Source: Roseibium litorale (GTDB taxonomy: Bacteria > Pseudomonadota > Alphaproteobacteria > Rhizobiales > Stappiaceae). Taken from it: a stretch of 64,000 nucleotides of DNA. This document shows, piece after piece, positions 21,337 through 40,210 of this stretch (position 1 is its first letter; each line of letters starts with the position of its first letter). The stretch is taken from the NCBI RefSeq assembly GCF_014842915.1, contig NZ_JACYXI010000005.1, positions 186,001-250,000 of the forward strand, given 5' to 3'. The position numbers and the translations under genes were made by a program. A model generated the notes under the pieces. That model saw only the letters and a list, made by a program, of their open reading frames with translations, ran no database searches and had not been told where the DNA came from.

Positions 21337-22140
21337 ATGCTTCAAGTAAACCTCATGGGTTGCTTCAGTATAGCCGTGAACGGTCAAAGGGTGCACGCCG
21401 AACTTGGGCAGTCGGGGCAGCGAATGGCTGCTATGCTCTTTTCTCAGCCTGGCCGGATGCTACGTCGCGAGTGGATCGCCGAAAGCTTCTGGCCCCAACT
21501 TGAAGAGAGCAAGTCGAGGGCCGCCTTGAACTCCGCCTTGTGGCGCTTGCGGCGGATATTATGCCTGGAGCCCGAAAGCGCAGGCGCGAAAAATCTAATT
21601 TCGGTGGGAGACCATATCGTTCTCGAAGAGAAGCCTTGGCTCGAAGTCGATGCACTGACGATCAGCAGGACGGCCAAGGTTGAGGCACACTGCGCGGAAC
21701 CGGACCTGGAGTATGTCCTGCGCGCGATTGACCTTTATCAGGGGCCGTTTCTTGACGGCGAGGACAGTGACTTCTTCATCGAGGAGAGGGAGCGCCTGCA
21801 TTCATGCTTCGTTGAACTGGCACAAAGCGCACTGAAGCATCATTTGCGTAATCGCGTCTGGAAACAGGCCATTACCACCTGCCGGAATGTCCTCGCCCAT
21901 GATCCCTATCGCGAAATGTTTGTGCGGGCACTCGTGGCCATTCTCTGCCTTGACGACCGTCGGGCCGAAGCCATCCGTTATTGCGAGAGGTGGAGAAACA
22001 CGCTTCTGGCCGATATTGGCGTGGAACCGATGCCGAGAACGCTAAAGGTGCTCGAAAAAATCCGCAGGTGCTCCAGCGAAGAAGACCTCGCTGACTTGGA
22101 AACCACGATAGCATCAGGTCTGGCCCAAAGCGAATTTTAG
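21337..22140 (+). CDS. SARP/BTAD-type transcriptional regulator
   Basis: Probable pathway activator, 267 aa. The first 95 or so residues form an OmpR-like winged helix (LMGCFSIAVNG, RMAAMLFSQPGRMLRREWIAESFWP, ALNSALWRLRRIL). The rest is a bacterial transcriptional activator domain of TPR-like helices (VDALTISRT...YQGPFLDGEDSDFF...RERLHSCFVELAQ...VLAHDPYREMFVRALVAIL). This architecture is that of the Streptomyces antibiotic regulatory proteins. The ATG at 21337 is favoured by GGGAGG 6 bases upstream; a GTG lies one codon earlier. It heads the enediyne-type gene train, 102 bp before the next gene, so it may be its activator and could be co-transcribed. Proteobacterial BTAD regulators exist but are uncommon as cluster regulators. 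Confidence 0.85.
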   Translation: MLQVNLMGCFSIAVNGQRVHAELGQSGQRMAAMLFSQPGRMLRREWIAESFWPQLEESKSRAALNSALWRLRRILCLEPESAGAKNLISVGDHIVLEEKPWLEVDALTISRTAKVEAHCAEPDLEYVLRAIDLYQGPFLDGEDSDFFIEERERLHSCFVELAQSALKHHLRNRVWKQAITTCRNVLAHDPYREMFVRALVAILCLDDRRAEAIRYCERWRNTLLADIGVEPMPRTLKVLEKIRRCSSEEDLADLETTIASGLAQSEF

Positions 22141-22242
22141 TCACCCGAGATTTTGCCGTGAGTTTGGCACAAGGCCACGAACAGATGCCTGTCTCATCTT
22201 GGCTGCAGCTGTCCTTTTCGGCATCCGACCTCGAGGTGTAAA

Positions 22243-23133
22243 ATGGCTTTCGATCATGCTTCTGCACCCACCACGCCCCATCCGTTCACACGCACTCTGA
22301 TCGGACTTGGAGCTCTCGCGACGGGCATTCTGCTGGCCTATATTTGGTCCTACGAGCTTGTCGACAAAGTTGTGGCAGACCATGTAGCCCGGCTCGTCCT
22401 GCATGAAGGCCTGGCGACCTACCAGATCTCCTCCATCGGCACGGGCCTGCTTTTCGCCTTCGTGAGTGGCGTCGCCGGCACGCTTACAGCCTGCAATGTA
22501 TGCGTCCTCGCGACCGCCGTGCCCTTGACACCCCAAACAGGCGGACCAGCTCCGGCCGTGCGGTCGCTGCTGCCGTTTATCGGCTCACTGCTGATCGTTG
22601 CCTGCGGCTACGGCATTGTCGGCGTACTTCTGGGCGCGAACTTCCCCCAGTTGTCGTCTCAAACCCTTGGCAACATGCCTATGCGGCTGATGCAGGCGGG
22701 TTTTGTTTTCGTCTGCCTTGGCCTCTTGCTTGTCGGATGGGGCGTTGCTGTGCTGCGAAATAGTGGTGAACAGGCGGGCGCATGGCATCTGACATCATCC
22801 AACAAGGTACAGATAGCGCTGGGCGTAGTCGTGGCCGCATTCCAGATCGGCAGGCCGTTCCCACCATTTCGCAAGATGTTCGAGGACGCGATTGCCCGAG
22901 GAGATGCTCTCTATGGCGCTGCAGCATTCGGGCTTCAGGCCCTTGGCAACGTCGCCCTTGTCCTCTTGCTGGTGCTGCTGCTCTCCAGCTGGCGTAACGG
23001 CGCGATCCTCACCCGGATCGGCGAACATCCCGGCACGCGGGCAACACTGATCTCGATTGGCTTCCTGATCGGAGGGGCGTTCATGGTCTCTTACTGGGGA
23101 GTGCGCGTGCCTGCGATCTTTCTCGTCCGATAG
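22243..23133 (+). CDS. Polytopic membrane protein, CcdA/DsbD-like (tentative)
   Basis: A 296-aa protein with about six or seven hydrophobic segments (near residues 18-36, 66-95, 107-130, 150-170, 226-248, 265-285). The second contains CNVC in the context SGVAGTLTACNVCVLATAVPL. That resembles the Cys-bearing first helices of CcdA/DsbD-type thiol-redox transporters, which have Pro-Cys motifs, so a role in moving reducing equivalents across the membrane is possible. The similarity is weak and the second Cys-bearing helix of CcdA is not evident. A GAGGTG ribosome-binding site precedes the ATG. It is first after the SARP gene and 48 bp before the 71-aa ORF, so probably in the operon. Confidence 0.6.
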   Translation: MAFDHASAPTTPHPFTRTLIGLGALATGILLAYIWSYELVDKVVADHVARLVLHEGLATYQISSIGTGLLFAFVSGVAGTLTACNVCVLATAVPLTPQTGGPAPAVRSLLPFIGSLLIVACGYGIVGVLLGANFPQLSSQTLGNMPMRLMQAGFVFVCLGLLLVGWGVAVLRNSGEQAGAWHLTSSNKVQIALGVVVAAFQIGRPFPPFRKMFEDAIARGDALYGAAAFGLQALGNVALVLLLVLLLSSWRNGAILTRIGEHPGTRATLISIGFLIGGAFMVSYWGVRVPAIFLVR

Positions 23134-23181
23134 GGCCGCGGGCAATGAGGTCCTGGCACTAGCGATGAGGAATAGACAGAC

Positions 23182-23530: not shown

Positions 23531-23531
23531 C

Positions 23532-24575
23532 ATGAGCCACCATCTTGAGCAGAATGCGAGTTCTGAACTGATCTCTCCTGTCGCTTCGCGAGCCGGTGGG
23601 TTCAGCTTGACGGCGCGCCTTGCGAGGCTTTCGCCGCGTGAAGCCCTTCTCTCGGTTCGCGGCTTCACCGCCGCAACCCCCAGCGCCAAGAAATGCCTTG
23701 AAGAGGCGGGAAAGTGCTTCGTCGCGGGCTACAACAGCGCCCTGACCGGACATCTTTCAACGGTTCTGCAGGCCAGCTCCGGAATCGTCGAGCCTGAACG
23801 GTCGGGCTTTTTCATTGAAGGCGCAGCCATGGGCTGCGGGGTCCGTGATGCCATGCCCTGGCACATTTTTGCTGCACCGGGTTTGCCCCGCCTTCTCGCC
23901 GCCACTAGCCAACGCAACCCCTATCTGCCCACGGTCGGTGCCGGTTGGGCCATGGCGCGGTTGCCCTGGAGGCGGAAGGCGATCCTGCGCTGCCTTGATC
24001 GTCTGCTGGCCCCACTCGTCTTTGACGGATGGGGATTTCACGACTGCTATTTCAACGCAAAAATGCTGCGGCGCGGACCCGGCAGCCACATTGCCGGGTT
24101 GGCAGGCGGCATCGCCCGAAACGCGTGGGACCAGGGTGCTGGCCGCGCGACCTGGTTCATCTGTGGCGGTGATATCCATGAGGCATGCGCCCGGATCGCC
24201 CGAACCGATCCCAGTCGGCACGGAGACCTCTTTGCCGGTCTGGGGCTGGCAGTTACCTATGCCGGCGGCATAGACACAGACACCTGCGGGCGGCTGCGAC
24301 TGGCGACGGGAGCGCTGGGCCGGCACCTGGCACAAGGCAGTGCCTTTGGGCTGGTTGCGCATCACGATGCGTCAACCGACACGGCCGCAATCCGCGAGCG
24401 CGCTGCGGCCCTGACCGGCGTCCCCCCCGAGACGGTCGTCGCCATTGTGCGCTCGGCGATGCCAATCGGCCTTGGACAGCCGATGCAAGACCTGGGCGAT
24501 AGCTCGCGCCTCTACGAGCAATGGCGCAGTCGCACAGCCACGGACCTCGATACCGCCATGGAGAGCCGCCGATGA
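23532..24575 (+). CDS. unbL: Enediyne biosynthesis protein UnbL (DUF1702 family)
   Basis: One of the conserved unknown-function partners of enediyne PKSs. The 347-aa product shows DUF1702 landmarks in order: SVRGF near residue 40, CFVAGYNSAL near 62, GFFIEGAAMGCGVRDAMPW near 95, VGAGWAMARLPWR near 136, FDGWGFHDCYFNAK near 165, GAGRATWFICGGD near 200, and DLFAGLGLAVTYAGGI near 235. The last is followed by HLAQGSAFGLVAHHDAS. Length is typical. An AGGAGG ribosome-binding site lies directly before the ATG, and the stop overlaps the unbV start by 4 bases (ATGA), so the two are translationally coupled. Family role is not biochemically settled; co-occurrence with PKSE and TEBC is established knowledge of enediyne clusters. 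Confidence 0.88.
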   Translation: MSHHLEQNASSELISPVASRAGGFSLTARLARLSPREALLSVRGFTAATPSAKKCLEEAGKCFVAGYNSALTGHLSTVLQASSGIVEPERSGFFIEGAAMGCGVRDAMPWHIFAAPGLPRLLAATSQRNPYLPTVGAGWAMARLPWRRKAILRCLDRLLAPLVFDGWGFHDCYFNAKMLRRGPGSHIAGLAGGIARNAWDQGAGRATWFICGGDIHEACARIARTDPSRHGDLFAGLGLAVTYAGGIDTDTCGRLRLATGALGRHLAQGSAFGLVAHHDASTDTAAIRERAAALTGVPPETVVAIVRSAMPIGLGQPMQDLGDSSRLYEQWRSRTATDLDTAMESRR

Positions 24576-26479
24576 CCTCCCCCCTTTCCAGCCATGCCGG
24601 GAAGTTGGTCGCCGGCTTCATCGCCTCCGGTCTGCTGCTCCTTGCCTTGCCGCCGCAGAGCAAGGTAAAGGGCGCACTGGAAGACCCTGCCCGCTTCGCC
24701 TTTGTCCGGGTGCCGCTCGAACCGGCGGACAAATCGGGCTTCAGGCCGATCCGGCCCGTGCATCCTGACTACCAGCACATCGCAGCCTGGATCTCATCGG
24801 TTGGCGCATCCGTCGCAATCGGAGACCTCGATGGGGACAGGGTTTCAAACGAAGCCTGCCTGGTCGATCCTCGCAATGACAGCGTGTCGATCCTTCCGCT
24901 CGGCCGCCGGGAGACTGAGAGCTTCGAACCCTTCACCCTGCTCACGCCGAAGGATGGATATGATGTGGCCACCACGGCGCCGATGGGCTGCCTCTTCGCG
25001 GACGCCAATGCCGACGGGCACGAGGACGTGCTGGTTTACTACTGGGGACGGTCGCCGGGAATATTCGAAAACAGCGGATCAATGTCCCGCGAGGGCTTCA
25101 CCTTTCATGAAATCACCGACCGCGGCGAGGTCTGGTTCACCAATGCCGCGGTGTTCAGCGACATAGACGGCGACGGTTTCGGCGACTTCCTGTTCGGCAA
25201 CTATTTCCCGGATGAGTCCGGCGTGCTCGACACAATCGGGCGCCGACCGGTCGAAATGCAGCATTCGATGTCGCGCGCCTATAATGGCGGCACAAATCGC
25301 CTATTTCTCAATACCGGCGCCAACTCCGGCACGTTTGCCTTCGACGATCATTCGGGCTCGCTCGACGCCACGATGGCAACCGGCTGGACCCTGGCCCTCG
25401 GTGCCGCGGATCTGAACCATGACGGCTACCCCGAAATCTATGTTGCCAATGACTTCGGACCCGACAGGCTTTTACTGAACCGGTCCACGCCGGGCGATCC
25501 CGCCTTTTCAATCGCCGAAGGCAGGCGCGGCTTGACGGATATACGCTCCGGCGTGCTCGGAAGAGACTCCTTCAAGGGAATGGGAGTTGATTTTGCCGAT
25601 GTCGACGGGGATGGCGGTCTCGACATCTTTGTCAGCAATATCGCCGAGGATTATGCGCTGCTGGAAAGCCATCTGCTTTTCCTGCACCAGCAGAATATCG
25701 GCTGGGAGAACGGTCGAGCCCCCTATCGAAACGCCTCCGGCGCACTTGGGCTGGCCCGGTCCAGCTGGGGATGGGACGCCAAATTTGCAGATCTGGACAA
25801 TGACGGGACCTATGAAGCCCTTCAGGCGACCGGCTTCGTCAAGGGGTGGTCCGATCGATGGCCGGAACTGCAGGAACTGGCGATGGGCAATGACGAACTG
25901 CTGCGTCATCCCGGGGTCTGGCCACTTTTCGAGGAAGGCGACGGCCTGTCCGGCGACCGTGCCGACGCTTTTTTCGTGCGCGGCGAAGACGGGCGGTTTC
26001 ATGACATGGCGTCGCAATTCGGTTTAGCAGAGGCAAGCGTCACGCGTGGCATCGCGCTTGCCGATATCGACGGCGACGGCGATCTCGATTTCGCGCTCGC
26101 GCGTCAGTGGGAGCCCTCAGTCCTGTTCGTCAATGCCGCCGGACAGGAACGTCCTTCTCTCATCCTGGATCTGCGATTGACGAATCCCGACGGTTCGACG
26201 CGTCCGGCAATCGGTTCCATCGCAACGGCCACCTTCGAGAACGGAGGCACTCTGTCCGCCATATGCGACAGCAGCAACGGCCATTCCGGGCACCGGTCGC
26301 CCGAGGTGCATTTCGGCCTCGGCAACAGCTCGGCGGAGGTGCCCGTCACGGTTCGCTGGCGCACTGCAAGCGGTTACCACAAGCGCGACTTCCATTTCAT
26401 GCCGGGTCGCCATCGGGTGCTTCTGGATGATGGTCCAAGCCTCGATCTGGCCAGTCTGGGGACAGGGAGCAACCAATGA
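24572..26479 (+). CDS. unbV: Enediyne biosynthesis protein UnbV (FG-GAP repeats plus ASPIC/UnbV domain)
   Basis: A 635-aa protein, probably exported: an N-terminal hydrophobic segment (VAGFIASGLLLLALPP, about residues 13-28) follows a short basic start. It then has a chain of FG-GAP/calcium-loop motifs (DLDGDRVSNEACL, DANADGHEDVLVY, DIDGDGFGDFLFG, DLNHDGYPEIYV, DVDGDGGLDIFVS, DLDNDGTYEAL, DIDGDGDLDFALA) consistent with a beta-propeller. The C-terminal ASPIC/UnbV domain lies around residues 530-610 (GSIATATFENGG...SPEVHFGLGN). This is the architecture of UnbV in enediyne cassettes. The start at 24572 overlaps the unbL stop; an upstream in-frame ATG at 24521 would bury the signal segment. The stop overlaps unbU. 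Confidence 0.9.
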   Translation: MTSPLSSHAGKLVAGFIASGLLLLALPPQSKVKGALEDPARFAFVRVPLEPADKSGFRPIRPVHPDYQHIAAWISSVGASVAIGDLDGDRVSNEACLVDPRNDSVSILPLGRRETESFEPFTLLTPKDGYDVATTAPMGCLFADANADGHEDVLVYYWGRSPGIFENSGSMSREGFTFHEITDRGEVWFTNAAVFSDIDGDGFGDFLFGNYFPDESGVLDTIGRRPVEMQHSMSRAYNGGTNRLFLNTGANSGTFAFDDHSGSLDATMATGWTLALGAADLNHDGYPEIYVANDFGPDRLLLNRSTPGDPAFSIAEGRRGLTDIRSGVLGRDSFKGMGVDFADVDGDGGLDIFVSNIAEDYALLESHLLFLHQQNIGWENGRAPYRNASGALGLARSSWGWDAKFADLDNDGTYEALQATGFVKGWSDRWPELQELAMGNDELLRHPGVWPLFEEGDGLSGDRADAFFVRGEDGRFHDMASQFGLAEASVTRGIALADIDGDGDLDFALARQWEPSVLFVNAAGQERPSLILDLRLTNPDGSTRPAIGSIATATFENGGTLSAICDSSNGHSGHRSPEVHFGLGNSSAEVPVTVRWRTASGYHKRDFHFMPGRHRVLLDDGPSLDLASLGTGSNQ

Positions 26480-27444
26480 CCATTGCAATCGAAAGCGCCC
26501 GACGCGAGACAGCGGCAAGCGGCCGGATGAGTCTCGGCGAACGCTGGTATATCGACACGAGGCTTAAAGGCCTGGCGCGGTTCGCCTTCGCCATCACGGT
26601 CCTCAATGTGCTCGGTCATTTGTGGCTCGGCTTCGAGCAATCCTGGATCACGCCCTTCGTCGCCCTTTCCGCCGCCTACGGTACTGAACTTGCGGCGGAG
26701 ACCGCGCAGGCTTTCGCCGAACGGCGCCAGCCGCGCTACCTCGGCACGCCAGGAAAATTCGTTTCGTTTCTGCTGTCGGCGCATATCAGCGGATTGGCGG
26801 TCGGCATGCTGCTTTTCGCCGCCGAGCAGCTTTGGGTGGTCGCGTTCGGCGCTTCGCTCGCGGTCGCCTCGAAATGGCTCTTCCGCGTCACCGTTCCGAC
26901 CGAGAACGGTCCGGCCTCTCGCCATTTTCTCAATCCCTCCAATTTCGGGATCACGGTCGTTCTGCTGCTTTTCCCCTCCGTCGGGATCGCGCCCCCCTAC
27001 ATGTTCGCCGAAAACACGTCCGGCGTGCTCGACTGGCTGCTGCCTCTGCTGGTGATCTCGACCGGCAGTCTTCTCAACACGAAGCTGACCGGAAGGATGC
27101 CGCTGATCGGCGCCTGGCTCGCCAGTTTCGCCACGCAGGCGATAATCCGTGGTGTCATCAACGGCACGCCAATAGTCGCCGGCCTTCTGCCGATGACCGG
27201 CTTCGCCTTCATCCTCTTTACCTTCTACATGATCACCGATCCGGCAACTTCACCCGGCCGCCCCCGAGACCAAGTGATCTTCGCTGCCTCGGTTGCCGCC
27301 GTTTACGGGCTGCTCATGGAACTGCATGTGGTGTTCGGGCTGTTCTTCGCTCTGACCGCCGTGACGGCGATGCGGGGTCTCCTCTTGAAGCTGCCCCTGA
27401 AACGAGAAGCCGTAGTCCTCGCCAGCTCCGGTGGCGGCAAATGA
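26476..27444 (+). CDS. unbU: Enediyne biosynthesis protein UnbU (RnfD/NqrB-like membrane protein)
   Basis: A 322-aa integral membrane protein with about eight to ten hydrophobic helices and RnfD/NqrB-like features (HFLNPSNFGITVVLLLF near residue 150, MTGFAFILFTFYMITDPATSP near 245). UnbU proteins of enediyne cassettes have this length and fold class. A link to membrane electron transfer is suggested by the RnfD resemblance but unproven. The start overlaps the unbV stop (ATGA), and the stop overlaps the start of the protease gene, so unbL-unbV-unbU-protease is one translationally coupled unit. Confidence 0.88.
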   Translation: MTIAIESARRETAASGRMSLGERWYIDTRLKGLARFAFAITVLNVLGHLWLGFEQSWITPFVALSAAYGTELAAETAQAFAERRQPRYLGTPGKFVSFLLSAHISGLAVGMLLFAAEQLWVVAFGASLAVASKWLFRVTVPTENGPASRHFLNPSNFGITVVLLLFPSVGIAPPYMFAENTSGVLDWLLPLLVISTGSLLNTKLTGRMPLIGAWLASFATQAIIRGVINGTPIVAGLLPMTGFAFILFTFYMITDPATSPGRPRDQVIFAASVAAVYGLLMELHVVFGLFFALTAVTAMRGLLLKLPLKREAVVLASSGGGK

Positions 27445-29192
27445 CGGAAACTGTGCGGCTGGGAGGCGTCGACATCCCCATTCGAAGACGGGACGACCGG
27501 GTACTGTGTGTACAGGATCCGGCGGCGCGCGCCGCGAACTGGCCGGCGGAACTGATTGCACCGGAAAAGATCGGCCGCTCCCAGCGTCTCTCATTCGTCC
27601 CGGTAGAGCGCTCGCTCGACAAGACATCCCGACTGCTGGCGGAAACTGGCGCTCCCGGGCACTTCGTCGTCGCCTATGAGTTTGACGAACCCGGTTATCG
27701 CGTGCCGTTCCTGGCGAACGGCAAGATCAATATGCGGTTCCGACCTGACGTTTCGCCGGAACGGATCGATGAAATCCTGGAAGAAACCGGGCTGCAGATC
27801 GCTCGCCGGCACCCCGGAGATATTCTTGTCTGCCAAGCCCACGGCAAAGGCGTGCAGGACCCGGTCTCTATCGCCACTAGCCTGCTGGACAAGCCGGAAC
27901 TCGAGTTCGTCGAACCGGATTTCGTGCCGCAGGATGAGCCGTCCGATAGGAGAAGCTTCAGCGGTCCTGCCTATGATTGCCAATGGCATCTGCACGGCAG
28001 GCATCCCTCGCTCGGCATTGACAGCGCGGTGAACATCGACGCAGAGGCGGCCTGGAGGCTGAATGGCTACGGCTCGGAAGACATCATCATCGCTGTAATG
28101 GATGACGGCTTCGACCTCACCAATCCGGATCTGCAGAACGGCGTCGCGGACCCCTCCGACTTCCTGCCGGGATTTTATCAAGCCGAACCGGGGGCGGAAA
28201 TTGCTCCCGCCGATCTGGAGCCCTGGGCCGAACGGGATTTGGTGAACTATCACGGAACCCCCTGCGCCGGCATTGCCATCGGCCGGGGCAGCGAAGTCGC
28301 AGGCGTGGCGCCGGGATGTCGTTGGATGCCGGTGCGCTTTGCGATAGGCGACACCGACCAGGAAACGATCCTCGCCATTCTGAGTTATATTTCCGCCCGC
28401 GCGGACGTGCTGTCCTGCTCCTGGGCGAGCAAGCCCTCCTCCTTCGCGCGCCTGTCGTCGACAGCGGATCTCGTCATGGGCGAAATCGCCGCCTCTGGCG
28501 GGCGGCGAGGAAAGGGTCTGGTCATTGTTTTTGCCGCCGGGAACGACGACCTGCCGACCCGGCTGTCTGCAGCCGACAACCCCGACGGCTTCCACTACTA
28601 CCAGCGTGGAAAGCCGACAGGGCCATTCTTCCGGCAAAAGGATATCTACGCGAACTGGGTCAATCAGGCTGACGTGATCAGTGTCGGCGCAGTCAGTCAT
28701 CGTGGCCGCAAATCGCTCTACTCCAACTGGGGCTCGGATATCCATGTGGTCGCACCCTCGGACAATTTCCATCCCCGTCATCTTTCAACCCGCAGCGACT
28801 ACGGCTCGATCAACATCGCGACCACGGACAATGAAAATCACGGTCTAGGCCTGAAGGATGTCGGTTTTTCCAACGAGGAACACGGATTCATCACCTATGG
28901 CATGGGCGGAACCTCCGCAGCCGCGCCCATGGTGGCGGGGGTCTGTGCCCTCGTGCTTTCGGCCGATCCCGCGCTCTCGGCCGGCGAGGTGAAAGACATC
29001 ATCGCGCGATCAGCAAGCCGCTCCGCACTCGACCTTCAGACGGATGAAGACCTGTTGAACAACCGCCATGTCGGGGGCGCGTTCGATCCCGATACCGGGC
29101 GAAGCCCATGGTTCGGCTTCGGCCTCATCAACGCAGCAGACGCAGTGCGGCTTGCACTGGAAGCAAGGATCGATACCCGCATAACCGCGTAA
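27441..29192 (+). CDS. Subtilisin-like serine protease (S8 family)
   Basis: A 583-aa protein with a full S8 catalytic set: Asp221 in IIAVMDDGFDL, His271 in NYHGTPCAGIA, oxyanion Asn368 in FAAGND, and Ser492 in GMGGTSAAAPMVAG. The first 200 residues are a distinct N-terminal domain that may be a propeptide or binding domain. I see no signal peptide, so it looks cytoplasmic unless exported by another route. The ATG at 27441 overlaps the unbU stop; the frame is open upstream only as an antiparallel shadow of unbU. A protease between unbU and PKSE is not part of the classical enediyne cassette. Possible roles include processing a locus-encoded protein or a self-protection or activation step; both are inference. 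Confidence 0.9.
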   Translation: MTETVRLGGVDIPIRRRDDRVLCVQDPAARAANWPAELIAPEKIGRSQRLSFVPVERSLDKTSRLLAETGAPGHFVVAYEFDEPGYRVPFLANGKINMRFRPDVSPERIDEILEETGLQIARRHPGDILVCQAHGKGVQDPVSIATSLLDKPELEFVEPDFVPQDEPSDRRSFSGPAYDCQWHLHGRHPSLGIDSAVNIDAEAAWRLNGYGSEDIIIAVMDDGFDLTNPDLQNGVADPSDFLPGFYQAEPGAEIAPADLEPWAERDLVNYHGTPCAGIAIGRGSEVAGVAPGCRWMPVRFAIGDTDQETILAILSYISARADVLSCSWASKPSSFARLSSTADLVMGEIAASGGRRGKGLVIVFAAGNDDLPTRLSAADNPDGFHYYQRGKPTGPFFRQKDIYANWVNQADVISVGAVSHRGRKSLYSNWGSDIHVVAPSDNFHPRHLSTRSDYGSINIATTDNENHGLGLKDVGFSNEEHGFITYGMGGTSAAAPMVAGVCALVLSADPALSAGEVKDIIARSASRSALDLQTDEDLLNNRHVGGAFDPDTGRSPWFGFGLINAADAVRLALEARIDTRITA

Positions 29193-29204
29193 AAGGAGAC
29201 TGGA

Positions 29205-30119: not shown

Positions 30120-30211
30120 CTGGAGTTCCTGCAGTGGCTTCTTAACCGCAGGGGTTTTCTTTGGGATTTCGGCTCGGCCGCACGAGAGGCAAAAGGTTGG
30201 AGACAACGGCT

Positions 30212-33200: not shown

Positions 33201-35911
33201 TGCGCAATCCAACCGACTTCGCCGAAGCGTCGCCGGCAATCCTGGCCGCTGAGCTGGCGGAATTGGCAGAATTCCAACCGGAAAGCAGCGGGTGGACGAG
33301 AGTGAACGGCGTTCGCCGTTGGGTCGCAGACTATGGCATAGTCTGGCGCGCCTGCGGCCTGCCCAAGCCCGGGGTACGGCGTGTCCAATGGGCACCTGAT
33401 CCCTCGATTCCGGAGACCGGGTCGGCCGCCGACCTCGGGCTGTTGATCGACCTGCCATCCGGCTTCGCGGTCGTTGAGGCCTTGAGGCTTATCGAACGGC
33501 TGCAACAGGCCGAGCGCCAGGGTATCCGCAGGCTCGCCGTGATCCATGACCACCTGCCGGTATCTTCGCTGTTTCGCTCTTTGTTCCAGGAACGCGCCTT
33601 CGAGGCAATCCTGCTGATCGATCGCAACGGCCAGAGTCCGGGCGATCCCCGGATAGACGATCTGCTTCGCCTTGCCCCGGATGGCTTCGCCGACCATCGG
33701 CTTGCTAATCAGCACATTATCGATCGCGCCATTTTCGAACCACAGCCACAGAGACCAGCTCGCCCGACCGGCGGAATGCCCGGTCCCAAAGAGATCGTGC
33801 TGGCAGTTGGCTGCCATCGTGGCATCGGTGCGGAATGCGCCTTCTCCCTTGCCGCAGATGGGGCGCCACTCGTACTCGTCGGCCGCAGCAATCCAACCGA
33901 TCGTGCCGTGACCAATACGCTGGCGATCGCCCGCTCGCGCGGCATCGAAGCGCGCTATGAGCAATGCGACGTGACCGACCCGTCATCTGTCGCGGAACTC
34001 GCGCAGAGGCTCAATAACGCGGTCCTTGAGCCCAGCGTCTTGTTGTTCGCCCCGGCGGTGAATGAACCGATGCGCCTGGGCGCGCTTACGGCCAAGAGCG
34101 TCCGGTCGACCCTCGCGCCAAAGGTGGAGGGGCTGACCGCAGTTCTTGACCGTTTCGGCTCAGGTCTGCACCAGGTGATCGCCTTCGGATCAATCATCGG
34201 GCGCATCGGCCTGGAGGGCGAAAGCCATTATGCACTGGCCAATGCCATGCAGAGCCGGATTGTTGAGGATTTCGCCGAGGCGCATCCGGCATGCCGTTGC
34301 CTTTCGCTGGAATGGACCGTCTGGGGCGGTGCCGGGATGGGCGAACGGCTTGGAACCATTGAACGGCTGGCCGAAAACGGCGTCGATGCCCTGTCTTTCG
34401 AAGCAGCCATGGCCACCTTCTGTCAGCATGTCAGCGCGGGAACGTCGGGCACCATAGTGATCACCGGACGCTTCGGTCCGCCCAAGGGGCTTGAAATCGG
34501 GTCAACCGGGAGCCGCCCCTTGCGTTTCGTCGACCGCGTCCTGATCGATTTCCCCGGAACCGAACTAGTCGTCGAGACGGACCTCAACGCTGGTCGGGAC
34601 CTGTTCCTTGCCGATCACCGCATCGACGGCCGGACCATGCTGCCAGGTGTGATAGGTATCGAGGCTATGGCCCAGGTGGTGGCCACCCTGATCGGGGGCG
34701 AAGCGCCCCGCCGAATCACCGATTCCGTGTTCCATCGGGCAGCTATCGTCGGCCGTGACGGCTTGCGAATCCGGATTGCCGCTCTGCGGGCCGCGGATGC
34801 CAGCGTCGAGGCTTGCATCTTTACGCAGGACGACGACTTCCAGTCGCCGTGTTTCAGCGCGCGGTTCCATTCGGTCGCCAACCTGAGCGCCTCGCCGAGT
34901 ATCGCCCGGGTCGGATCCGATGCCGAAATGGACGAGAGCACCTCGGCCACTCTCCTCTACGGTCCGTTGTTCTTTCATGGCCCAAGGTTCCGAAAGTTGC
35001 ACGGCATTGAACGTGTCTCGTCGCGTGGCGTTGACGCCCGACTGACGGAGAACAGCAGATCGGACTGGTTCGGCGCCTTCGAGCCAGCGGAGCTGCTCCT
35101 CGGCGATCCGGGCGTCGCCGATGCGGCGCTGCATGTCCTGCAGGTGACCATCCCGCATAGACGCGTGCTACCGCTTTCGATCGGCGAGTTCGTCCGCTTG
35201 GGCTCCCTGGGTGCGGTCCGCCGTTTCGTCGGTGTCGAGAATTGGACCCGAGGCGACATCTACAGTTTCGACGTCGAGGCCTTCGATGACGACGCCCGCC
35301 TCGTCGCGGCCTGGCGGGACGCCCAGTTCAAGGCGATTGGAGACATCGACGCCGGTGCGTGTCTTCAGGCGGCCCCTCTTCTGTTCCGGCCCTATCTCGA
35401 ACGGATCGCGCGCGCAGAACTGGGCGACGACAGTGTGCGTGTCGCGTTCGTGCGCGGGTTTCGGGCCGAAAGGGAGCAACGCCGCGTTCAAGCGCTTCGG
35501 GCGCTGGGGCTCAACGGAAAGGTCAAGCAGAGGGTCGACGGCAGCCCGATGCTAGTCACCGGTGAAGGCTTCCTGGGGTTGAGTCATGGCGCGGGCGTCA
35601 GCCTTGCTGTCCATGGCTCACATCCAATCGCCTGTGATGTAACGGAGCTCGGCGCGGTCTATCCCGATGTCGCGGGCAGGTCGCTTACGGCCGAAGACTG
35701 GGCCCAAGCAGAGGTGCTGCGCAAACTTGGCGAACCGGAGCCTTTCGCGCTTCCGTTGCGGGCTGTCTCAAGAGGCGCGGACCCGCACCGTCCTGTCGTT
35801 TTTTCCCGTTCTCTGCCCGCTCTCGATCTGGCCGTCGCCATCGGAACAATCCAAGCGGCGGCTGCGTCGGAGCCGGAGCCGTCCCGCAACTTTTCGGAGA
35901 TCGCGCTATGA
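30212..35911 (+). CDS. pksE: Enediyne-type iterative polyketide synthase (PKSE)
   Basis: Single-module iterative type I PKS, 1899 aa, within the usual PKSE size. Domains in order: KS with Cys212 (TVDGACSSSLLAV), His345 (EAHGTGT) and His382 (NIGHTKAAAG); AT with Ser655 (GHSLGELAAL); one ACP with Ser978 (LHLNSLAVTRI). A linker follows, then KR with nucleotide-binding GCHRGIG near residue 1200 and Ser/Tyr1340/Asn (SHYALAN). Next is DH with His1469 (DHRIDGRTMLPG) and YGPLFFHGP, then a C-terminal PPTase with RVDGSPML, LSHGAGVSLAV, Asp1809 (IACDVTE) and WAQAEVLRKLG. KS-AT-ACP-KR-DH-PPTase is diagnostic of enediyne PKSs, which self-phosphopantetheinylate and build a C15-16 polyene from malonyl-CoA. 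The ATG at 30212 has GGAGA 8 bases upstream. The stop overlaps TEBC. Confidence 0.93.
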   Translation: MTSVGHIAICSLSCRFPDAGSPEELWGNLMDGRRSFRAIPPQRLPMDAYARSRIGTADSITPVLAGLLNDWHFDREAFLIPKAAFENTDLTHWLALQLASEALAAAGGIDRLDRARTAVVVANTLTGEFSRAAILRLRQPFLDELLEETLAATGAGTEAADRIREEFANRLKSAFPEPNEDSLAGGLANTIAGRIANHFDLKGGAYTVDGACSSSLLAVANAATLLRDGIVDTVITGAVDLSLDPFELVGFSRNGALSPTRMRVFDARSDGFWPGEGGAFSVFMRAEDARRRGFPIRAVLRGWGMSTDGSGGLTRPDSQGQLLAYRRAHEMADSNPADLAYVEAHGTGTAIGDPTEVTALAALREGASKPLPIGSVKANIGHTKAAAGFAGLVKTVMSLQKGGVPPHAGCEEPHAIFRETDSRLFPVQQAKAFGNSKAPLVGVSSFGFGGINLHVVLEGGERQTARVTAFTGSSLRGEQGAELFLFRAGDRSGLRECLEVLRTTAANLSLAELADAAANAFDTLGLGSFRLAFVARDARELCTRIDEALTLLMREDGAKGMSSKDTEQKIHIGSGARRKIGYLFSGQAAPAVKPSPVWLARFPFLRPLADALSIEVEGTVTDTAVAQPAITYANLAAMQVMAAFGVEAEVATGHSLGELAALAWAGSLEPVHALDLAARRGAVMAHHGRANGAMLRLGLSADAAPALADGLDCYLACVNGRQETVFSGSAGALSELSKRAVRAAVTCQPLQVSHAFHSPDMAAAVDPFRAVLANICFAAPARAVVSTVTGAQLTEAASIGGLLGDQLVRPVQFVRALDEMAANTSLFIELGPGSGLTRLANDHGLTALALDSQSDDLVPLLSGLAAAFAAGHDIDRKQLLAFRGIRSIDLGRGIEFLSNPCGRRADRSTRTRSELRVRSQTPAPAVRSREAATLRTGGAPAGETLIQAVLGVVAEETGLPVAAIDPEARFQSQLHLNSLAVTRIVVSVCKRLGRQPVRNPTDFAEASPAILAAELAELAEFQPESSGWTRVNGVRRWVADYGIVWRACGLPKPGVRRVQWAPDPSIPETGSAADLGLLIDLPSGFAVVEALRLIERLQQAERQGIRRLAVIHDHLPVSSLFRSLFQERAFEAILLIDRNGQSPGDPRIDDLLRLAPDGFADHRLANQHIIDRAIFEPQPQRPARPTGGMPGPKEIVLAVGCHRGIGAECAFSLAADGAPLVLVGRSNPTDRAVTNTLAIARSRGIEARYEQCDVTDPSSVAELAQRLNNAVLEPSVLLFAPAVNEPMRLGALTAKSVRSTLAPKVEGLTAVLDRFGSGLHQVIAFGSIIGRIGLEGESHYALANAMQSRIVEDFAEAHPACRCLSLEWTVWGGAGMGERLGTIERLAENGVDALSFEAAMATFCQHVSAGTSGTIVITGRFGPPKGLEIGSTGSRPLRFVDRVLIDFPGTELVVETDLNAGRDLFLADHRIDGRTMLPGVIGIEAMAQVVATLIGGEAPRRITDSVFHRAAIVGRDGLRIRIAALRAADASVEACIFTQDDDFQSPCFSARFHSVANLSASPSIARVGSDAEMDESTSATLLYGPLFFHGPRFRKLHGIERVSSRGVDARLTENSRSDWFGAFEPAELLLGDPGVADAALHVLQVTIPHRRVLPLSIGEFVRLGSLGAVRRFVGVENWTRGDIYSFDVEAFDDDARLVAAWRDAQFKAIGDIDAGACLQAAPLLFRPYLERIARAELGDDSVRVAFVRGFRAEREQRRVQALRALGLNGKVKQRVDGSPMLVTGEGFLGLSHGAGVSLAVHGSHPIACDVTELGAVYPDVAGRSLTAEDWAQAEVLRKLGEPEPFALPLRAVSRGADPHRPVVFSRSLPALDLAVAIGTIQAAAASEPEPSRNFSEIAL

Positions 35912-36402
35912 CCGTCCTGGGCAGCCCCCCGTACCTAGGTCAGGACTATGGGGCCGAAGGCTCGCCCCCACAGGACCGGCCCGCCTTCGTCTACCGCCAT
36001 GTCGTATCCTTCGAGGAGACGAATGTCGTCGGCAACGTCTATTACGCCCGCCACGTCGCCTGGCAAGGGCGCTGCCGGGAAATGTTTCTGAAGACGCATG
36101 CGCCGGGGGTCCTCGACGAGATCCGGCAGGATCTGAGGCTCGTGACGTTGCGGGTGTCGTGCGATTACTTCGCCGAACTGCAGGCCTTCGACGAGGTCGA
36201 GCTGCGCATGCGCCTCGCCTTCGTACGCCAGCACCGGATCGGCCTCGATTTCGATTACTGGGCTGTCACCGGCGGCACAGACCAGCTTGCCGCCCGCGGC
36301 TTCCAGGAAATTGGCTGCATGCGCCAGCGCCCCGACGGCCTGAGCGCCGTAGCCGTTCCCGAAGAACTGGCCGAAGCTTTGCGCCCGTTCGAGGCGCACT
36401 GA
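35908..36402 (+). CDS. Enediyne thioesterase TEBC (4HBT hotdog fold)
   Basis: A 164-aa hotdog thioesterase that releases the PKSE-bound polyene. It carries the signature FEETNVVGNVYYARHVAWQGRCREMF (residues 35-60), the pattern shared by enediyne thioesterases such as CalE7, DynE7 and SgcE10, with Asn39 and Arg57 at the positions I recall as catalytic in CalE7. The residue equivalent to the conserved Tyr of YYxxY is His49 here. The N-terminal 25 residues are a variable extension. The ATG overlaps the PKSE stop, so the two are coupled. An AraC-type gene follows after 2 bases. Confidence 0.92.
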   Translation: MTVLGSPPYLGQDYGAEGSPPQDRPAFVYRHVVSFEETNVVGNVYYARHVAWQGRCREMFLKTHAPGVLDEIRQDLRLVTLRVSCDYFAELQAFDEVELRMRLAFVRQHRIGLDFDYWAVTGGTDQLAARGFQEIGCMRQRPDGLSAVAVPEELAEALRPFEAH

Positions 36403-36404
36403 CA

Positions 36405-37211
36405 ATGGCGAGCGAAGCGATCCGCACAAGCCCACCCGGGCGCTTTCGCGCCGAAGAACACCGGCGCGTGGTGAGCAAGGTCATCTCGGGTATGAAGAAG
36501 CTGGAAAACGGCGATGTTTCGCTATGCGAATGGGCTGAGTACGCCTCGCTCAGTAAGTTCGAGTTGATCTCCGCCTTCAAAAAGCTAACCGGCATTCCAC
36601 CGATGGCGTTCCACAATGCGGAGAAACTCGAGATCGCCAAACGGCTACTGGTGTTCGAACGCATGCGGGTCACCGACGTCTGCTTCGAGATCGGTTTCGA
36701 GAGCCTCGGCTCCTTCGTCAGTAAGTTCTCTTGTTGCGTCGGGATCTCGCCAAGAAACTATGCGAAGGCCATGAGTGCCGTCGGCTTCACCGGCCTCTTC
36801 GTCCAAGCACTCCTACACGGTAAGCCCCGCTCACCGAAAGCCGGTACGGTGATCGAGGTGCAATTCGAGTCCCCCGAAGCGCACGACCGGCCAAGCCTGA
36901 TCACAGCCGTCTTCCCGCGTGCCCATCCCTCCGGCATGCCCTCCGACTGGCGCTTCGTGCCGCCGACACGCCGCATCGCTCTATTCGGTGGTGGCCTAAA
37001 GGGGTATTGCCTAGCGGCGGCGTTGCCACTGTGGCCACGACTGACCGAACTGGTCAACTTCCGCCCCGTCCTGATCGGGCGGACATCGATACAGCCCAAT
37101 CTCGACAAGATCCGAGTGGCACTCCATCCGCCGACGATCTTCGATCCTCCGGTCACACTTGCCGTGCCTGCGCTGTTCTGCCACCAGATTACCGAGGTCG
37201 AAAGACCATAG
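36405..37211 (+). CDS. AraC-family transcriptional regulator
   Basis: A 268-aa regulator with the AraC/XylS double helix-turn-helix at the N-terminus (about residues 20-120: LCEWAEYASLSKFELISAFKKLTGIPP and VTDVCFEIGFESLGSFVSKFSCCVGISPRNY). An unrecognised 145-residue C-terminal domain may bind a ligand. Having the DNA-binding domain first is the reverse of most AraC proteins. The start lies 2 bases after the TEBC stop, so it is co-transcribed and coupled. A feedback regulator sensing pathway product or intermediates would fit, by inference. A much longer in-frame opening begins upstream inside PKSE and is not used. Confidence 0.85.
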   Translation: MASEAIRTSPPGRFRAEEHRRVVSKVISGMKKLENGDVSLCEWAEYASLSKFELISAFKKLTGIPPMAFHNAEKLEIAKRLLVFERMRVTDVCFEIGFESLGSFVSKFSCCVGISPRNYAKAMSAVGFTGLFVQALLHGKPRSPKAGTVIEVQFESPEAHDRPSLITAVFPRAHPSGMPSDWRFVPPTRRIALFGGGLKGYCLAAALPLWPRLTELVNFRPVLIGRTSIQPNLDKIRVALHPPTIFDPPVTLAVPALFCHQITEVERP

Positions 37212-37425
37212 GAGATGGTCGATGGAAGTTGCGTATTTGATTTCTGCAATTTTCGAGAAGAGAAGGGCCTAGGTAGGAAATACAATTCTGTTCAACAAAA
37301 CAATCTGAATCATCAATATCCGGCAGATCACAAGAAAATAGGACGACAGTAAAAGTATAATAAATCGGAAATTGGTGAGGGAACTGCTTTTCAGACAAGT
37401 TTAGGCTCCCAGATGGAGGTTGATG

Positions 37426-38847
37426 ATGGTTATTCCTATCGTTTCAGGTCCGTATAGAACATTCAGAGCACTAACGCAGGATGAGAGTTTTATCGAATTC
37501 GAAGGATCGACAATCACAATTCCGATGAAAGCCAGGCGTTCGCCGAATGAGCCGTGGATGGAGGAGATCATAAAACTGCGCGCCTTCATGCGTCTGGAAA
37601 TCTACCCGGCTTATGTCAACAATCTGGGGACGCGCGAATTCCAGTTCACGATCCGGGATTGGGATCTTTATGGGAAAAGCCCGATGCTCAATCAGCTCTT
37701 CTACGGTGATCCGAGAGGAAAGCTGGTCGTCGACAAAAAGACCGGATTTGCGGATCATATTCCGGCCGCAGTGACCTTTACCGTCAATCACGGTTACAGC
37801 CTGACTGTTGACGAGGGCGCCGGCGAGGGAGCGAGGGAGCTTTTCGGTAAGAACAGCGATATCGAGATTCGCGATTTGTGCAGCCATCACCTTAGGACTT
37901 GGGCCCCTGCTCCGGAGCGGAATTCGGCGATAACACCCTACGGAAATCCGAATACTCGGATCTATTGGCAAATCATCCCCGCAAGCCGTGCCAAGGCTGC
38001 CAAACTGAACTATCTCTTCGAGAATCCGGAAGCCGAACGACTTGGTCTTCAGGTCGGCATGGGGATCATGATCTTTCACAAGAAGGCTCCGAACATTCCG
38101 GGCGATACCGCGGAATTCGACATCGCGAACCCGGAGGATCGGGCCCGATATCTGCTGGCGATCACAACGCTTGGTGAAGCCCGGTCGTTACGCACTGACG
38201 ACGGGTCCGTTCCTATTCTCCAGGCAAAACTTCCCTCGCGTGGATTTGAAGCGGCACGAGGGCAAATCAAGGGCAACTCGGTCATTTCGAGCCTCTATAG
38301 GCCGCGCTCGGGCCTCGATATTCGAATTCCTATCGCCGCGCGATTCCGCTCCGGCGGTGATTTTAACGAAAGCGCGGAGAAACTGGCTTCGACGTCTCGG
38401 GGAGAAATCCTGAAGGGAACGATCGATATCAAAAGCCCGGCCCGTAGTCTTGGAACGGCGGATCAAGCGCCGGACCCAGGAAGACCGTTCGACTCAGCAG
38501 ATTTTCCCGCCCGGATCACCTATGCCGCCAATTACGACATCTACATCAATCGAGAACGCTTCGTCGAAGATCAGGCGGGGATCGCCATCGCCGTCGGTGC
38601 AGAGGACGTTCCGCCTCGAGACGTCAAAGTAGCCTTCGAAAAACCGCAGGCCGGTTTGGTCGCGGGGAGGTTCATTGAATTTTCTTCGGGCGATTGCACT
38701 GGAATGTTCGAAATTCCGATGGAAGATTACAGGGACGGACTTAATTTTGCCCGGTACTGGCGCACCGTCCCGCTGGAGCCGGAAGCCGTCAGGTTCAAAT
38801 CTGAAGGCGGCCAATTCGAGGATTACGATCCTTTGCGCGAATACTAA
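37426..38847 (+). CDS. Hypothetical protein (473 aa)
   Basis: Not recognised. The 473-aa product lacks a signal peptide and clear membrane helices. Sequence is beta-rich with repeated hydrophobic strands (EFQFTIRDWDLYGKSP, AAVTFTVNHGYSLTV, LRTWAPAPERNSAI, ARITYAANYDIYINRERF). The C-terminus is acidic. GGAGG at 37415-37419 favours the ATG at 37426 (6 bases away); an ATG at 37423 and a TTG at 37420 are in the same frame. It follows a 214-bp lower-GC gap after the AraC gene, so may have its own promoter. The next gene starts 10 bp after its stop. Its base composition is visibly less GC-rich than the PKSE block. Confidence 0.75.
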   Translation: MVIPIVSGPYRTFRALTQDESFIEFEGSTITIPMKARRSPNEPWMEEIIKLRAFMRLEIYPAYVNNLGTREFQFTIRDWDLYGKSPMLNQLFYGDPRGKLVVDKKTGFADHIPAAVTFTVNHGYSLTVDEGAGEGARELFGKNSDIEIRDLCSHHLRTWAPAPERNSAITPYGNPNTRIYWQIIPASRAKAAKLNYLFENPEAERLGLQVGMGIMIFHKKAPNIPGDTAEFDIANPEDRARYLLAITTLGEARSLRTDDGSVPILQAKLPSRGFEAARGQIKGNSVISSLYRPRSGLDIRIPIAARFRSGGDFNESAEKLASTSRGEILKGTIDIKSPARSLGTADQAPDPGRPFDSADFPARITYAANYDIYINRERFVEDQAGIAIAVGAEDVPPRDVKVAFEKPQAGLVAGRFIEFSSGDCTGMFEIPMEDYRDGLNFARYWRTVPLEPEAVRFKSEGGQFEDYDPLREY

Positions 38848-38857
38848 CCAGCGCTTG

Positions 38858-40210
38858 ATGCTGACTGATAGCCAAACAGCGGGGGTATGCGAGGACGATG
38901 CCCTGAAAGGTAGGGCGACCTCGTTTCCCTCCCGTACAAAGCTTGCCGGGCGCTGCGTGCGTGTTGGGGCAATCGCTGCAGGCATGCTTCTTTCGCGCAC
39001 ACCACGATGGGCATATTTGCGGAGCCGCGGTCGGGTGAACGAAGCGAACCAATGCCTGGGAGAAAGCATCGCACAAACATTGGAACGGTTGGGGCCGGTG
39101 TTCCTGAAATTGGGGCAGATCGTTTCCCATAGGTCTGACCTCTTGCCAGAAGACCTGCTGCGGCCATTGCGGCGGATTCAAGATCAAGTCGGACCGGAGC
39201 GCTTTGAGATCTCCCGTGCGACCCTCGAACGGACATTCAACCGCCAAACTGGAGAACTATTCTCAGCCTTCGAGGCAAAGCCGATCGCGGCCGGCAGCAT
39301 TGCAACCGTTTACAGGGCGAAACGGTGCGACGGACGGGAAGTTGCGGTCAAGATTGTCCGTCAGGACGCCGCTCGGATTTTAACGATGGACCTCCGGATT
39401 GGCGCATGGCTCGCAGGCTTTGTCGCGAACCTCAAAGCATTCAAAGCATTACCCATTGCAGAATGCTACTCCGAGATCGAAGCGCTGTTCGTCGCGCAAC
39501 TCAACATGCATATGGAGGCATCAAATCTTGAGGCGATGCAGGAAGACAATTTCATTCAGCGGCACGTCAATATTCCTTCAGTGCACGCGGATCTCGTTGG
39601 TCCCGATGTGCTGGTGATGGATTTTGTCGACAACGCCGTCAGTATCAGTGCCGATCACATCGAGACGACAATCTACAAGCAGGCCGCGCAGTCCGTTCTG
39701 GCAGTCCTTTACCGGATGGCATTCGAAACCGGTTTTGTCCATTGCGATATGCACCCGGGCAATCTCCTTCTGGACGAATCTTGCGAAGTCTGGCTTCTCG
39801 ACGGAGGCTTTTTCGCACACTTCAGCGAGAGAGATAGGCTATGTTTTCAGGACCTTTTCCTCGGCCTGGCATTCGGCGAACCCGACCGGTGTTGTGACAG
39901 TCTCGTCGGGTCTGCAATCACCATCCCGCAATCTTTGGACCGGGAGGCGCTCCGGAGCGACGTGAACAGGCTAATCGAGACCCATCACAGCAAGAGGGCA
40001 GGGTCATTCCTTGTAGCAGCCTTCGTTTATGACCTGTTCACGCTACAGAAGCGCCACGGCCTCTATGCACGGTCAAGTTTCGTTGCGGCGATCTGGGCAT
40101 TCGTTACATTCGAAGGAATCGTGCGCGACCGGTTCCCAGAACTCGATTTCCAGGGTGAAGCAAAACCTTTTGTAGTCAGCAGAATCATCAAGAGCATGAG
40201 AACCCGATAG
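38858..40210 (+). CDS. UbiB/ABC1-family atypical kinase (island copy)
   Basis: A 450-aa ADCK/UbiB-type protein, a paralogue or xenologue of the core UbiB at 3.1-4.7 kb. It has the KxGQ hallmark (GPVFLKLGQIVSHRSDLLP, about residues 75-93), the Ala-rich nucleotide loop (IAAGSIATVYRA), VAVKIV with the Lys, a catalytic loop FVHCDMHPGNLLL, and a variant of the metal-binding motif, WLLDGGFFAHF, instead of VDFG. It is shorter than UbiB at the C-terminus and lacks an obvious terminal membrane anchor. The ATG at 38858 is 10 bp after the previous stop with no strong ribosome-binding site, suggesting coupling. Its role in the island is unknown; UbiB-like proteins act on isoprenoid or lipid-soluble substrates. 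Confidence 0.85.
   Translation: MLTDSQTAGVCEDDALKGRATSFPSRTKLAGRCVRVGAIAAGMLLSRTPRWAYLRSRGRVNEANQCLGESIAQTLERLGPVFLKLGQIVSHRSDLLPEDLLRPLRRIQDQVGPERFEISRATLERTFNRQTGELFSAFEAKPIAAGSIATVYRAKRCDGREVAVKIVRQDAARILTMDLRIGAWLAGFVANLKAFKALPIAECYSEIEALFVAQLNMHMEASNLEAMQEDNFIQRHVNIPSVHADLVGPDVLVMDFVDNAVSISADHIETTIYKQAAQSVLAVLYRMAFETGFVHCDMHPGNLLLDESCEVWLLDGGFFAHFSERDRLCFQDLFLGLAFGEPDRCCDSLVGSAITIPQSLDREALRSDVNRLIETHHSKRAGSFLVAAFVYDLFTLQKRHGLYARSSFVAAIWAFVTFEGIVRDRFPELDFQGEAKPFVVSRIIKSMRTR

What the first reader, a model, noticed from the sequence alone, without database searches (positions are those of the whole stretch)
21337..40210. Complete minimal enediyne PKS cassette on an alphaproteobacterial island
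Seen directly: UnbL (DUF1702), UnbV (FG-GAP plus ASPIC/UnbV), UnbU (RnfD-like), a KS-AT-ACP-KR-DH-PPTase synthase of 1899 aa and a TEBC thioesterase with FEETNVVGNVYY, all co-directional with ATGA overlaps. Established knowledge: these five genes together mark enediyne biosynthetic loci, described mostly from actinomycetes. Inference: this host makes an enediyne-type polyene or a related compound. I am not aware of a characterised example in this lineage.
Basis: partly seen in the sequence, partly recalled or inferred. Interest (0 to 1): 0.93.

Follow-up and report, generated by a model that had tools for sequence, protein, structure and literature searches.

The report
Enediyne-type synthase cassette in an alphaproteobacterium
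An alphaproteobacterium carries the five core genes with which actinomycetes start making DNA-cutting enediyne antibiotics, but without the finishing genes checked here, so it probably makes a simpler polyene or polyyne relative.

Summary
Window 23532-36402 encodes UnbL (DUF1702), UnbV, UnbU, a KS-AT-ACP-KR-DH-PPTase synthase and a TEBC thioesterase, co-directional. The KS falls in the enediyne clade (100/99.8); the TE's best solved structures are CalE7, an ACP-polyene thioesterase and DynE7.

Refinements: a subtilase and an unknown gene lie between UnbU and synthase. Proteobacterial cassettes or enediyne KSs are in print (PMC8788690, PMC10308959).

New here: a supported alphaproteobacterial clade, patchy (DUF1702 over cut-off in 3 of 87 family genomes), closest found relative on a Sinorhizobium pSymA. 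C-1027 accessory genes E6-E9/E11 are near 44 of 51 actinomycete loci, 0 of 7 alphaproteobacterial and 0 of 20 other loci. An unannotated membrane protein (22243-23133) tracks the cassette: all 23 plasmids bearing it also carry an enediyne synthase.

Most likely function: a C15 polyene, oxidised by UnbL/V/U to an (iodo)polyyne-type product; a mature enediyne by the C-1027 route is unlikely. Chemistry is untested. New variant of a known kind.

The parts
21334..22140 (+). SARP-type (BTAD) transcriptional activator; GTG start 21334 or ATG 21337
   Evidence: BTAD 7.7e-19; matches in 7 of the 9 other alphaproteobacterial loci, 71% to Mesorhizobium L-8-3
22243..23133 (+). P0002, multi-helix membrane protein without a Pfam family, recurrent in enediyne loci
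   Evidence: 0 Pfam families up to E 5; 23 plasmid records, all also with an enediyne synthase; 18 of 50 PKSE-bearing genomes; 1 of 385 class genomes, the own one
23532..24575 (+). UnbL / E3, DUF1702
   Evidence: PF08012 4.2e-64; 33% to SgcE3, 56% to S. meliloti T073
24572..26479 (+). UnbV / E4, FG-GAP repeats with UnbV_ASPIC; the ORF opens at 24521, likely start ATG 24572
   Evidence: Pfam FG-GAP_3 1.9e-24, UnbV_ASPIC 1e-8; ATGA overlap; 41% to SgcE4
26476..27444 (+). UnbU / E5, RnfD-like membrane protein
   Evidence: 49% to SgcE5, 78% to S. meliloti T073; weak RnfD match
27441..29192 (+). Subtilase (peptidase S8), found only here among the compared loci
   Evidence: Peptidase_S8 1.7e-34; no homologue at 1e-5 in the 80 loci
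29205..30119 (+). P0007, unknown protein of 304 aa, found only here
   Evidence: 0 Pfam families up to E 5; no plasmid match; none at 1e-5 in the 80 loci
30212..35911 (+). PKSE, iterative KS-AT-ACP-KR-DH-PPTase, 1899 aa (open frame from TTG 30161)
   Evidence: Pfam; DynE8 AT structure matched over 499-917; 59% to S. meliloti T073, 37% to SgcE; KS tree
35908..36402 (+). TEBC / E10, hot-dog thioesterase
   Evidence: CalE7 1.7e-43, ACP-polyene thioesterase 2.7e-43, DynE7 1.1e-39
36405..37211 (+).
   Evidence: HTH_18 6.1e-15; similar genes in 5 of 9 other alphaproteobacterial loci
37423..38847 (+). P0010, unknown protein of about 474 aa
   Evidence: 52% to a protein after TE in Mesorhizobium L-8-3; 1 of 385 class genomes, the own one
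38858..40210 (+). ABC1/UbiB-type atypical kinase (open frame from TTG 38675; likely start ATG 38858)
   Evidence: ABC1 1.8e-44; relatives in 8 of 80 PKSE loci; same family as TnmR2/TnmR3 of the tiancimycin cluster (PMC9464397 passages)
19071..19147 (+). tRNA-Arg(CCG), left edge of the variable region
   Evidence: conserved with relative G044 up to 19154, no blastn match at 1e-5 in the next 37 kb there

Best explanation
This is a horizontally spread, cassette-only enediyne-type locus in an alphaproteobacterium (probably family Stappiaceae). PKSE phosphopantetheinylates its own ACP and builds a C15 conjugated polyene from malonyl-CoA by repeated KS-KR-DH cycles, and TEBC releases it (polyene making and release are reported for CalE8/CalE7; for SgcE and DynE8 recalled; here inferred from homology and intact motifs). 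UnbL, UnbV and UnbU then oxidise the chain at the membrane, most likely to the iodinated polyene / diiodotetrayne / polyyne level that I recall being reported for the actinomycete cassette (Gui 2024; title seen, content recalled). Without the C-1027-type E6-E9/E11 enzymes the product is probably not carried to a mature nine-membered enediyne. The end product would be a reactive linear polyene or (iodo)polyyne, perhaps trimmed by locus-specific proteins (P0010, P0007, subtilase). SARP, AraC and ABC1-kinase genes would keep expression tight, as AraC and ABC1 genes do in tiancimycin; P0002 is probably an accessory membrane protein for redox, export or protection. Shown: gene content, clade membership, absence of the listed accessory genes where searched, patchy distribution. 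Inferred: all chemistry, regulation and the role of P0002.
For: Pfam and solved-structure matches for core proteins and identity to C-1027 proteins for all five. KS inside a 42-row PKSE clade at 100/99.8, alphaproteobacterial subclade 100/98, window with S. meliloti T073 100/96 (96-row tree). Core partners together in 7 of 7 alphaproteobacterial loci. Accessory genes at 40% identity or more: 44 of 51 actinomycete, 0 of 7 alphaproteobacterial, 0 of 20 other loci; none in the window, S. meliloti or G015 stretches. SgcE8 in 3 of 25 whole genomes searched, exactly the three actinomycete ones; SgcE9 no match in the own genome. [quoted passage not shown] Sporadic: DUF1702 over cut-off in 3 of 87 family genomes and 1 of 385 class genomes.
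Against: No product is known to me from any alphaproteobacterium, so the chemical step rests on homology at 33-52% to C-1027 proteins. The iodopolyyne claim is recalled from a paper that is not held. Accessory genes were tested only with the C-1027 (nine-membered) set and within 10 kb, except E8 and E9; 7 of 51 actinomycete loci also lack them, and some contigs are short. Ten-membered-type tailoring genes were not tested. Enzymes elsewhere in the genome could finish the molecule. The sister lineage (Puniceibacterium, G015) does carry a P450 and a methyltransferase after TE, so tailoring can occur in this clade.
Confidence: 0.6

Rival explanations
1. The host makes a true, cyclised enediyne, using non-C-1027 tailoring enzymes in or outside the window.
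For: The five genes said to be common to all enediynes are present (PMC5181780 passages). AraC and ABC1 genes resemble regulators of the tiancimycin cluster. Unknown proteins P0010 and P0007 and a DAPG-hydrolase-like protein are nearby.
Against: No E6, E7, E8, E9 or E11 match in the window, no E8 or E9 match in the own genome, and no such match at 40% or more near any of the 27 non-actinomycete PKSE loci plus 2 Thalassospira loci. No self-resistance gene was recognised; none was searched for with a dedicated model.
Confidence: 0.2
2. The locus makes only the PKSE/TEBC polyene (heptaene-type) as a pigment or membrane antioxidant, and UnbL/V/U handle or anchor it rather than making triple bonds.
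For: CalE8 makes conjugated polyenes that CalE7 releases (PMC3107222 abstract and passages). Thalassospira keeps a PKSE with none of the four partners found in the stretches held (2 of 2 loci).
Against: UnbL, UnbV and UnbU are kept in 7 of 7 alphaproteobacterial loci, and UnbU is among the best conserved (58-78%), which points to a needed chemical role.
Confidence: 0.15
3. The cassette is a silent or decaying passenger in this genome.
For: Present in few relatives; a subtilase/P0007 insertion interrupts the operon.
Against: All frames are open, and the motifs that I take as catalytic are intact in the alignment with SgcE (roles recalled); ribosome-binding-like sequences and ATGA junctions are kept.
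Confidence: 0.05

Closest known systems
Enediyne PKS cassette E3/E4/E5/E/E10 of actinomycetes (C-1027, Streptomyces globisporus plasmid SGLP1)
   Same: Same five gene families, same order E3-E4-E5-E, same PKSE domain order, KS in the same clade
   Different: 33-52% identity; one DUF1702 gene in the genome instead of two in the cluster; subtilase and P0007 inserted; TE directly after PKSE; no E6-E9/E11 match
Tiancimycin (anthraquinone-fused enediyne) cluster regulators
   Same: AraC regulator and ABC1/UbiB kinase genes accompany the cassette (PMC9464397 passages)
   Different: No TnmR1-type regulator was looked for; the window has a SARP; no direct sequence comparison with the tnm genes was made
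Cassette in Sinorhizobium meliloti T073 pSymA (NZ_CP021805.1)
   Same: Closest relative found: PKSE 59%, UnbV 72%, UnbU 78%, TE 74%, SARP 50%
   Different: No subtilase, P0007, P0002, P0010 or ABC1 match in the 35.6 kb taken; lies on a megaplasmid typed as conjugative
sgcE-like cluster reported in Methyloprofundus INp10 (PMC8788690)
   Same: Proteobacterial cassette E3, E4, E5, E, E10 (passages)
   Different: A methanotroph (gammaproteobacterial, recalled); not compared by sequence here
PUFA synthase PfaA
   Same: Iterative reducing type I synthase logic
   Different: KS falls outside: 35% identity, 206 bits to a PfaA-like KS that itself scored below the family cut-off

Membership tests
Enediyne PKS cassette | PKSE with KS-AT-ACP-KR-DH-PPTase in one protein | tested here: met
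   Pfam for KS, AT, ACP, KR, DH; PPTase region only by alignment with SgcE
Enediyne PKS cassette | KS inside the PKSE clade, outside PUFA and other KSs | tested here: met
   42 PKSE rows against 5 others, 100/99.8 (47 of the 96 rows); the PUFA stand-in is a PfaA-like KS below that family's cut-off; the window protein scores 398.8 against PfaA's 1010 cut-off
Enediyne PKS cassette | TEBC/E10 thioesterase | tested here: met
   CalE7, ACP-polyene thioesterase and DynE7 are the best hits
Enediyne PKS cassette | UnbL/E3, UnbV/E4, UnbU/E5 beside PKSE | tested here: met
   UnbU's Pfam match is below cut-off, its SgcE5 match is clear
Enediyne producer | Makes a nine- or ten-membered enediyne | not testable with these tools
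   no chemistry available
C-1027-type (nine-membered) enediyne cluster | Accessory genes E6, E7, E8, E9, E11 with the cassette | tested here: not met
   no match in the 64 kb window at 1e-6; E8 and E9 no match in the own genome
Ten-membered / anthraquinone-fused enediyne cluster | Dyn/Tnm-type core enzymes beyond the cassette | not tested
   no reference sequences were fetched
PUFA synthase (PfaA) | Score over the PfaA family cut-off; KS with PfaA | tested here: not met
   398.8 bits against a cut-off of 1010.1; KS outside; one PP-binding match
CcdA/DsbD membrane electron transporters (for P0002) | Shared fold | tested here: inconclusive
SARP regulators | BTAD domain after a winged-helix N-terminus | tested here: inconclusive
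   BTAD met; no Pfam match to an N-terminal DNA-binding domain

The most novel reading that the evidence does not exclude
Cassette-only loci in Alphaproteobacteria and other non-actinomycete groups are a separate, working natural-product pathway: stand-alone iodopolyene/polyyne makers, not degenerate enediyne clusters. Enediynes would be a derived actinomycete elaboration of this older or parallel pathway, and P0002 would be an overlooked membrane component shared by both.
Probability: 0.3. Interest if true: 0.75.

Novelty: new variant of a known kind. Interest (0 to 1): 0.52.

Why it matters
It points to Gram-negative hosts (Stappiaceae, rhizobia) for the least understood part of enediyne biosynthesis: what E3, E4 and E5 do. 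A natural cassette without the tested accessory genes is a clean place to see the direct cassette product. The contrast of 44 of 51 actinomycete loci against 0 of 27 non-actinomycete loci (0 of 29 with Thalassospira) makes a sharp, testable prediction about product type by group. P0002 is a candidate overlooked partner.

Tried and rejected
PUFA-synthase reading: rejected. Other PKS: rejected; the AT matches the DynE8 chain over its residues 7-421. tRNA-borne integrative element with direct repeats: no repeat of the tRNA end among the families found in 18900-43000, and of the window ORFs scanned only the rve-domain ORF at 19621-20232 looked like an integrase or transposase; not every window ORF was scanned, and the right edge is not fixed. 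P0010 structure: model useless (pLDDT 38, two sequences), so no fold search. P0002 fold: good model (pLDDT 83), but no match above background; the CcdA likeness of its TACN motif is my impression. The subtilase and P0007: P0007 has no plasmid match and neither has a relative in the 80 loci; kept as locus-specific. First KS tree held a very long stray row (L030_1) and other long branches; the clean tree is. A reading of L011:16188-16960 was in a wrong frame and dropped. Literature: the search by the Unb names listed unrelated papers; searches showed no paper on an alphaproteobacterial enediyne product among the rows listed (two found nothing; one held 138 papers and listed 20, none of these 20 with the word enediyne; one held 55 and listed 15).
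Full report
WHAT WAS CHECKED. The five claimed genes were translated and scanned. UnbL matches DUF1702 at 4.2e-64, UnbV matches FG-GAP repeats and UnbV_ASPIC, the synthase matches KS, AT, PP-binding, KR and DH models, and TE matches 4HBT_2. UnbU is only weakly RnfD-like in Pfam, below cut-off, but is 49% identical to SgcE5. Against solved structures the AT region matches DynE8 over residues 499-917, and the TE matches CalE7, an ACP-polyene thioesterase and DynE7, at 1.7e-43 to 1.1e-39. The names E2 to E11 for C-1027 genes are assigned from gene order and annotation on plasmid SGLP1 with recalled nomenclature; only SgcE6 is named in that record.

IS IT IN THE ENEDIYNE CLADE. In the careful tree of 47 KS rows (chosen from the 96 rows), 42 PKSE rows separate from a PfaA-like KS and four other KSs with support 100/99.8. 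The ten alphaproteobacterial rows (window, S. meliloti T073, G015 and seven loci) form a subclade at 100/98; two Thalassospira PKSEs fall elsewhere among the PKSEs. The window pairs with S. meliloti T073 (100/96). The other carrier in the host's own genus, G015, pairs with Puniceibacterium instead (100/98). The PfaA-like outgroup, L090, scored below its family's cut-off, so it stands in for a true PUFA synthase only roughly.

WHO IS THE HOST. The window lies in a 4.94 Mb, 99.86% complete genome. Its GyrB is 87% identical to that of congener G015, 81% to Pseudovibrio (L010's genome) and 57-74% to the best segments in the other nine genomes with a match. I infer family Stappiaceae, Alphaproteobacteria; the genus is not named by any tool.

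LAYOUT. SARP (21334) - P0002 (22243) - UnbL - UnbV - UnbU - subtilase - P0007 - PKSE - TE - AraC (36405-37211) - P0010 - ABC1 kinase (to 40210). In nine other alphaproteobacterial loci, the SARP has a match in 7 and the AraC gene in 5 (in Novosphingobium some 6 kb beyond TE); the Pseudovibrio contig is too short to judge either. P0002, P0010 and the ABC1 gene have matches only in Mesorhizobium L-8-3 among these nine. There the SARP is 71% and P0002 68% identical while PKSE is 41%, so the locus is a mosaic. The subtilase and P0007 have no counterpart at 1e-5 in the 80 loci.

WHAT IS MISSING. With C-1027 proteins as queries (tblastn 1e-6, at least 40% identity, up to 10 kb each side where the contig allows), any of E6, E7, E8, E9, E11 lies near 44 of 51 actinomycete PKSE loci, 0 of 7 alphaproteobacterial, 0 of 2 Thalassospira and 0 of 20 others, the last including gammaproteobacterial, planctomycete, cyanobacterial, acidobacterial and chloroflexal loci and one unplaced. 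For loci of at least 25 kb the numbers are 38 of 43, 0 of 5, 0 of 1 and 0 of 11. Weaker P450 matches to E7 exist in L013 (27%) and L018 (37%). The four core partners are found together in 39 of 51, 7 of 7, 0 of 2 and 10 of 20. The window, S. meliloti and G015 stretches have no accessory match either. Whole-genome searches of 25 genomes found E8 only in the three actinomycete genomes; E9 gave full-length matches only in those three, none in the own genome, and weak partial ones in 15 others.

SPREAD. DUF1702 over cut-off is in 2 of 45 genus genomes, 3 of 87 family genomes, with one further sub-threshold match, and 1 of 385 class genomes, the own one. S. meliloti T073 carries the cassette on pSymA, typed as conjugative. 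In relative G044, stretches holding rpsT and tRNA-Arg match the window at 82% and 90%, and nothing after window 19154 matches in the next 37 kb of G044 (blastn 1e-5). Patchy presence plus discordant relatedness supports horizontal spread.

MECHANISM. In print: CalE8 makes conjugated polyenes and CalE7 releases them (PMC3107222 abstract and passages). The five-gene cassette is common to the ten enediyne clusters then compared (PMC5181780 passages). In anthraquinone-fused enediynes the cassette is said to make both the iodinated anthracene precursor and the enediyne core, and iodine is essential for that precursor (PMC9464397 passages). Recalled, not read: Gui 2024 reports an iodoheptaene, a diiodotetrayne and pentaynes as cassette products; only its title was seen. 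From these, a locus with the cassette but without the tested accessory genes should stop at a linear polyene/polyyne. PMC9464397 also reports that the growth defect on loss of the ABC1-family TnmR3 is relieved without iodine; the ABC1 gene here may play a like part. All this is inference for the present host.

PRIOR KNOWLEDGE. [quoted passage not shown] The cassette's presence outside actinomycetes is therefore known. The alphaproteobacterial clade with its SARP/AraC partners, the counted lack of accessory genes and the P0002 link were not seen in the rows and passages of my paper searches, within the limits of the held library; no search was made for P0002 by name, since it has none.

VERDICT. 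Observation confirmed; interpretation partly supported; new variant of a known kind; interest 0.52.

Noticed in passing
L082:10040-16006 and L060:2158-8067: Thalassospira PKSEs lie inside the enediyne KS clade, yet no UnbL, UnbV, UnbU or TEBC match was found in the stretches held (25.7 and 8.2 kb); two small genes precede the synthase in both.
   Followed up: partly
L013:14658-19633 and the matching stretch of G015 after its TE: Puniceibacterium and G015 share a post-TE block: an unknown 441-residue protein (78%), AraC, a methyltransferase and a P450, so this sublineage does carry tailoring genes.
   Followed up: partly
41397-42404 (+) and 40380-41318 (-): A DAPG-hydrolase (PhlG-type, 5.6e-66) protein with a possible Tat signal, divergent from a LysR regulator, right after the locus.
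   Followed up: no
27441-30119: Subtilase plus an unknown protein inserted between UnbU and PKSE; the region before the peptidase domain looks to me like a propeptide. No counterpart in the 80 PKSE loci.
   Followed up: partly
19621-20232 (-): Integrase-core (rve) ORF, likely a transposase remnant, between tRNA-Arg and the SARP gene.
   Followed up: no
G000:C35:154336-156339: The genome holds a second large type I PKS (open frame 2551 aa) outside the PKSE clade.
   Followed up: no
L058, L071, L081: Three Pseudonocardiaceae PKSEs branch at the base of the non-alphaproteobacterial PKSEs and show no C-1027 accessory gene at 40% or more; L058 and L071 have an ABC1 gene nearby.
   Followed up: no
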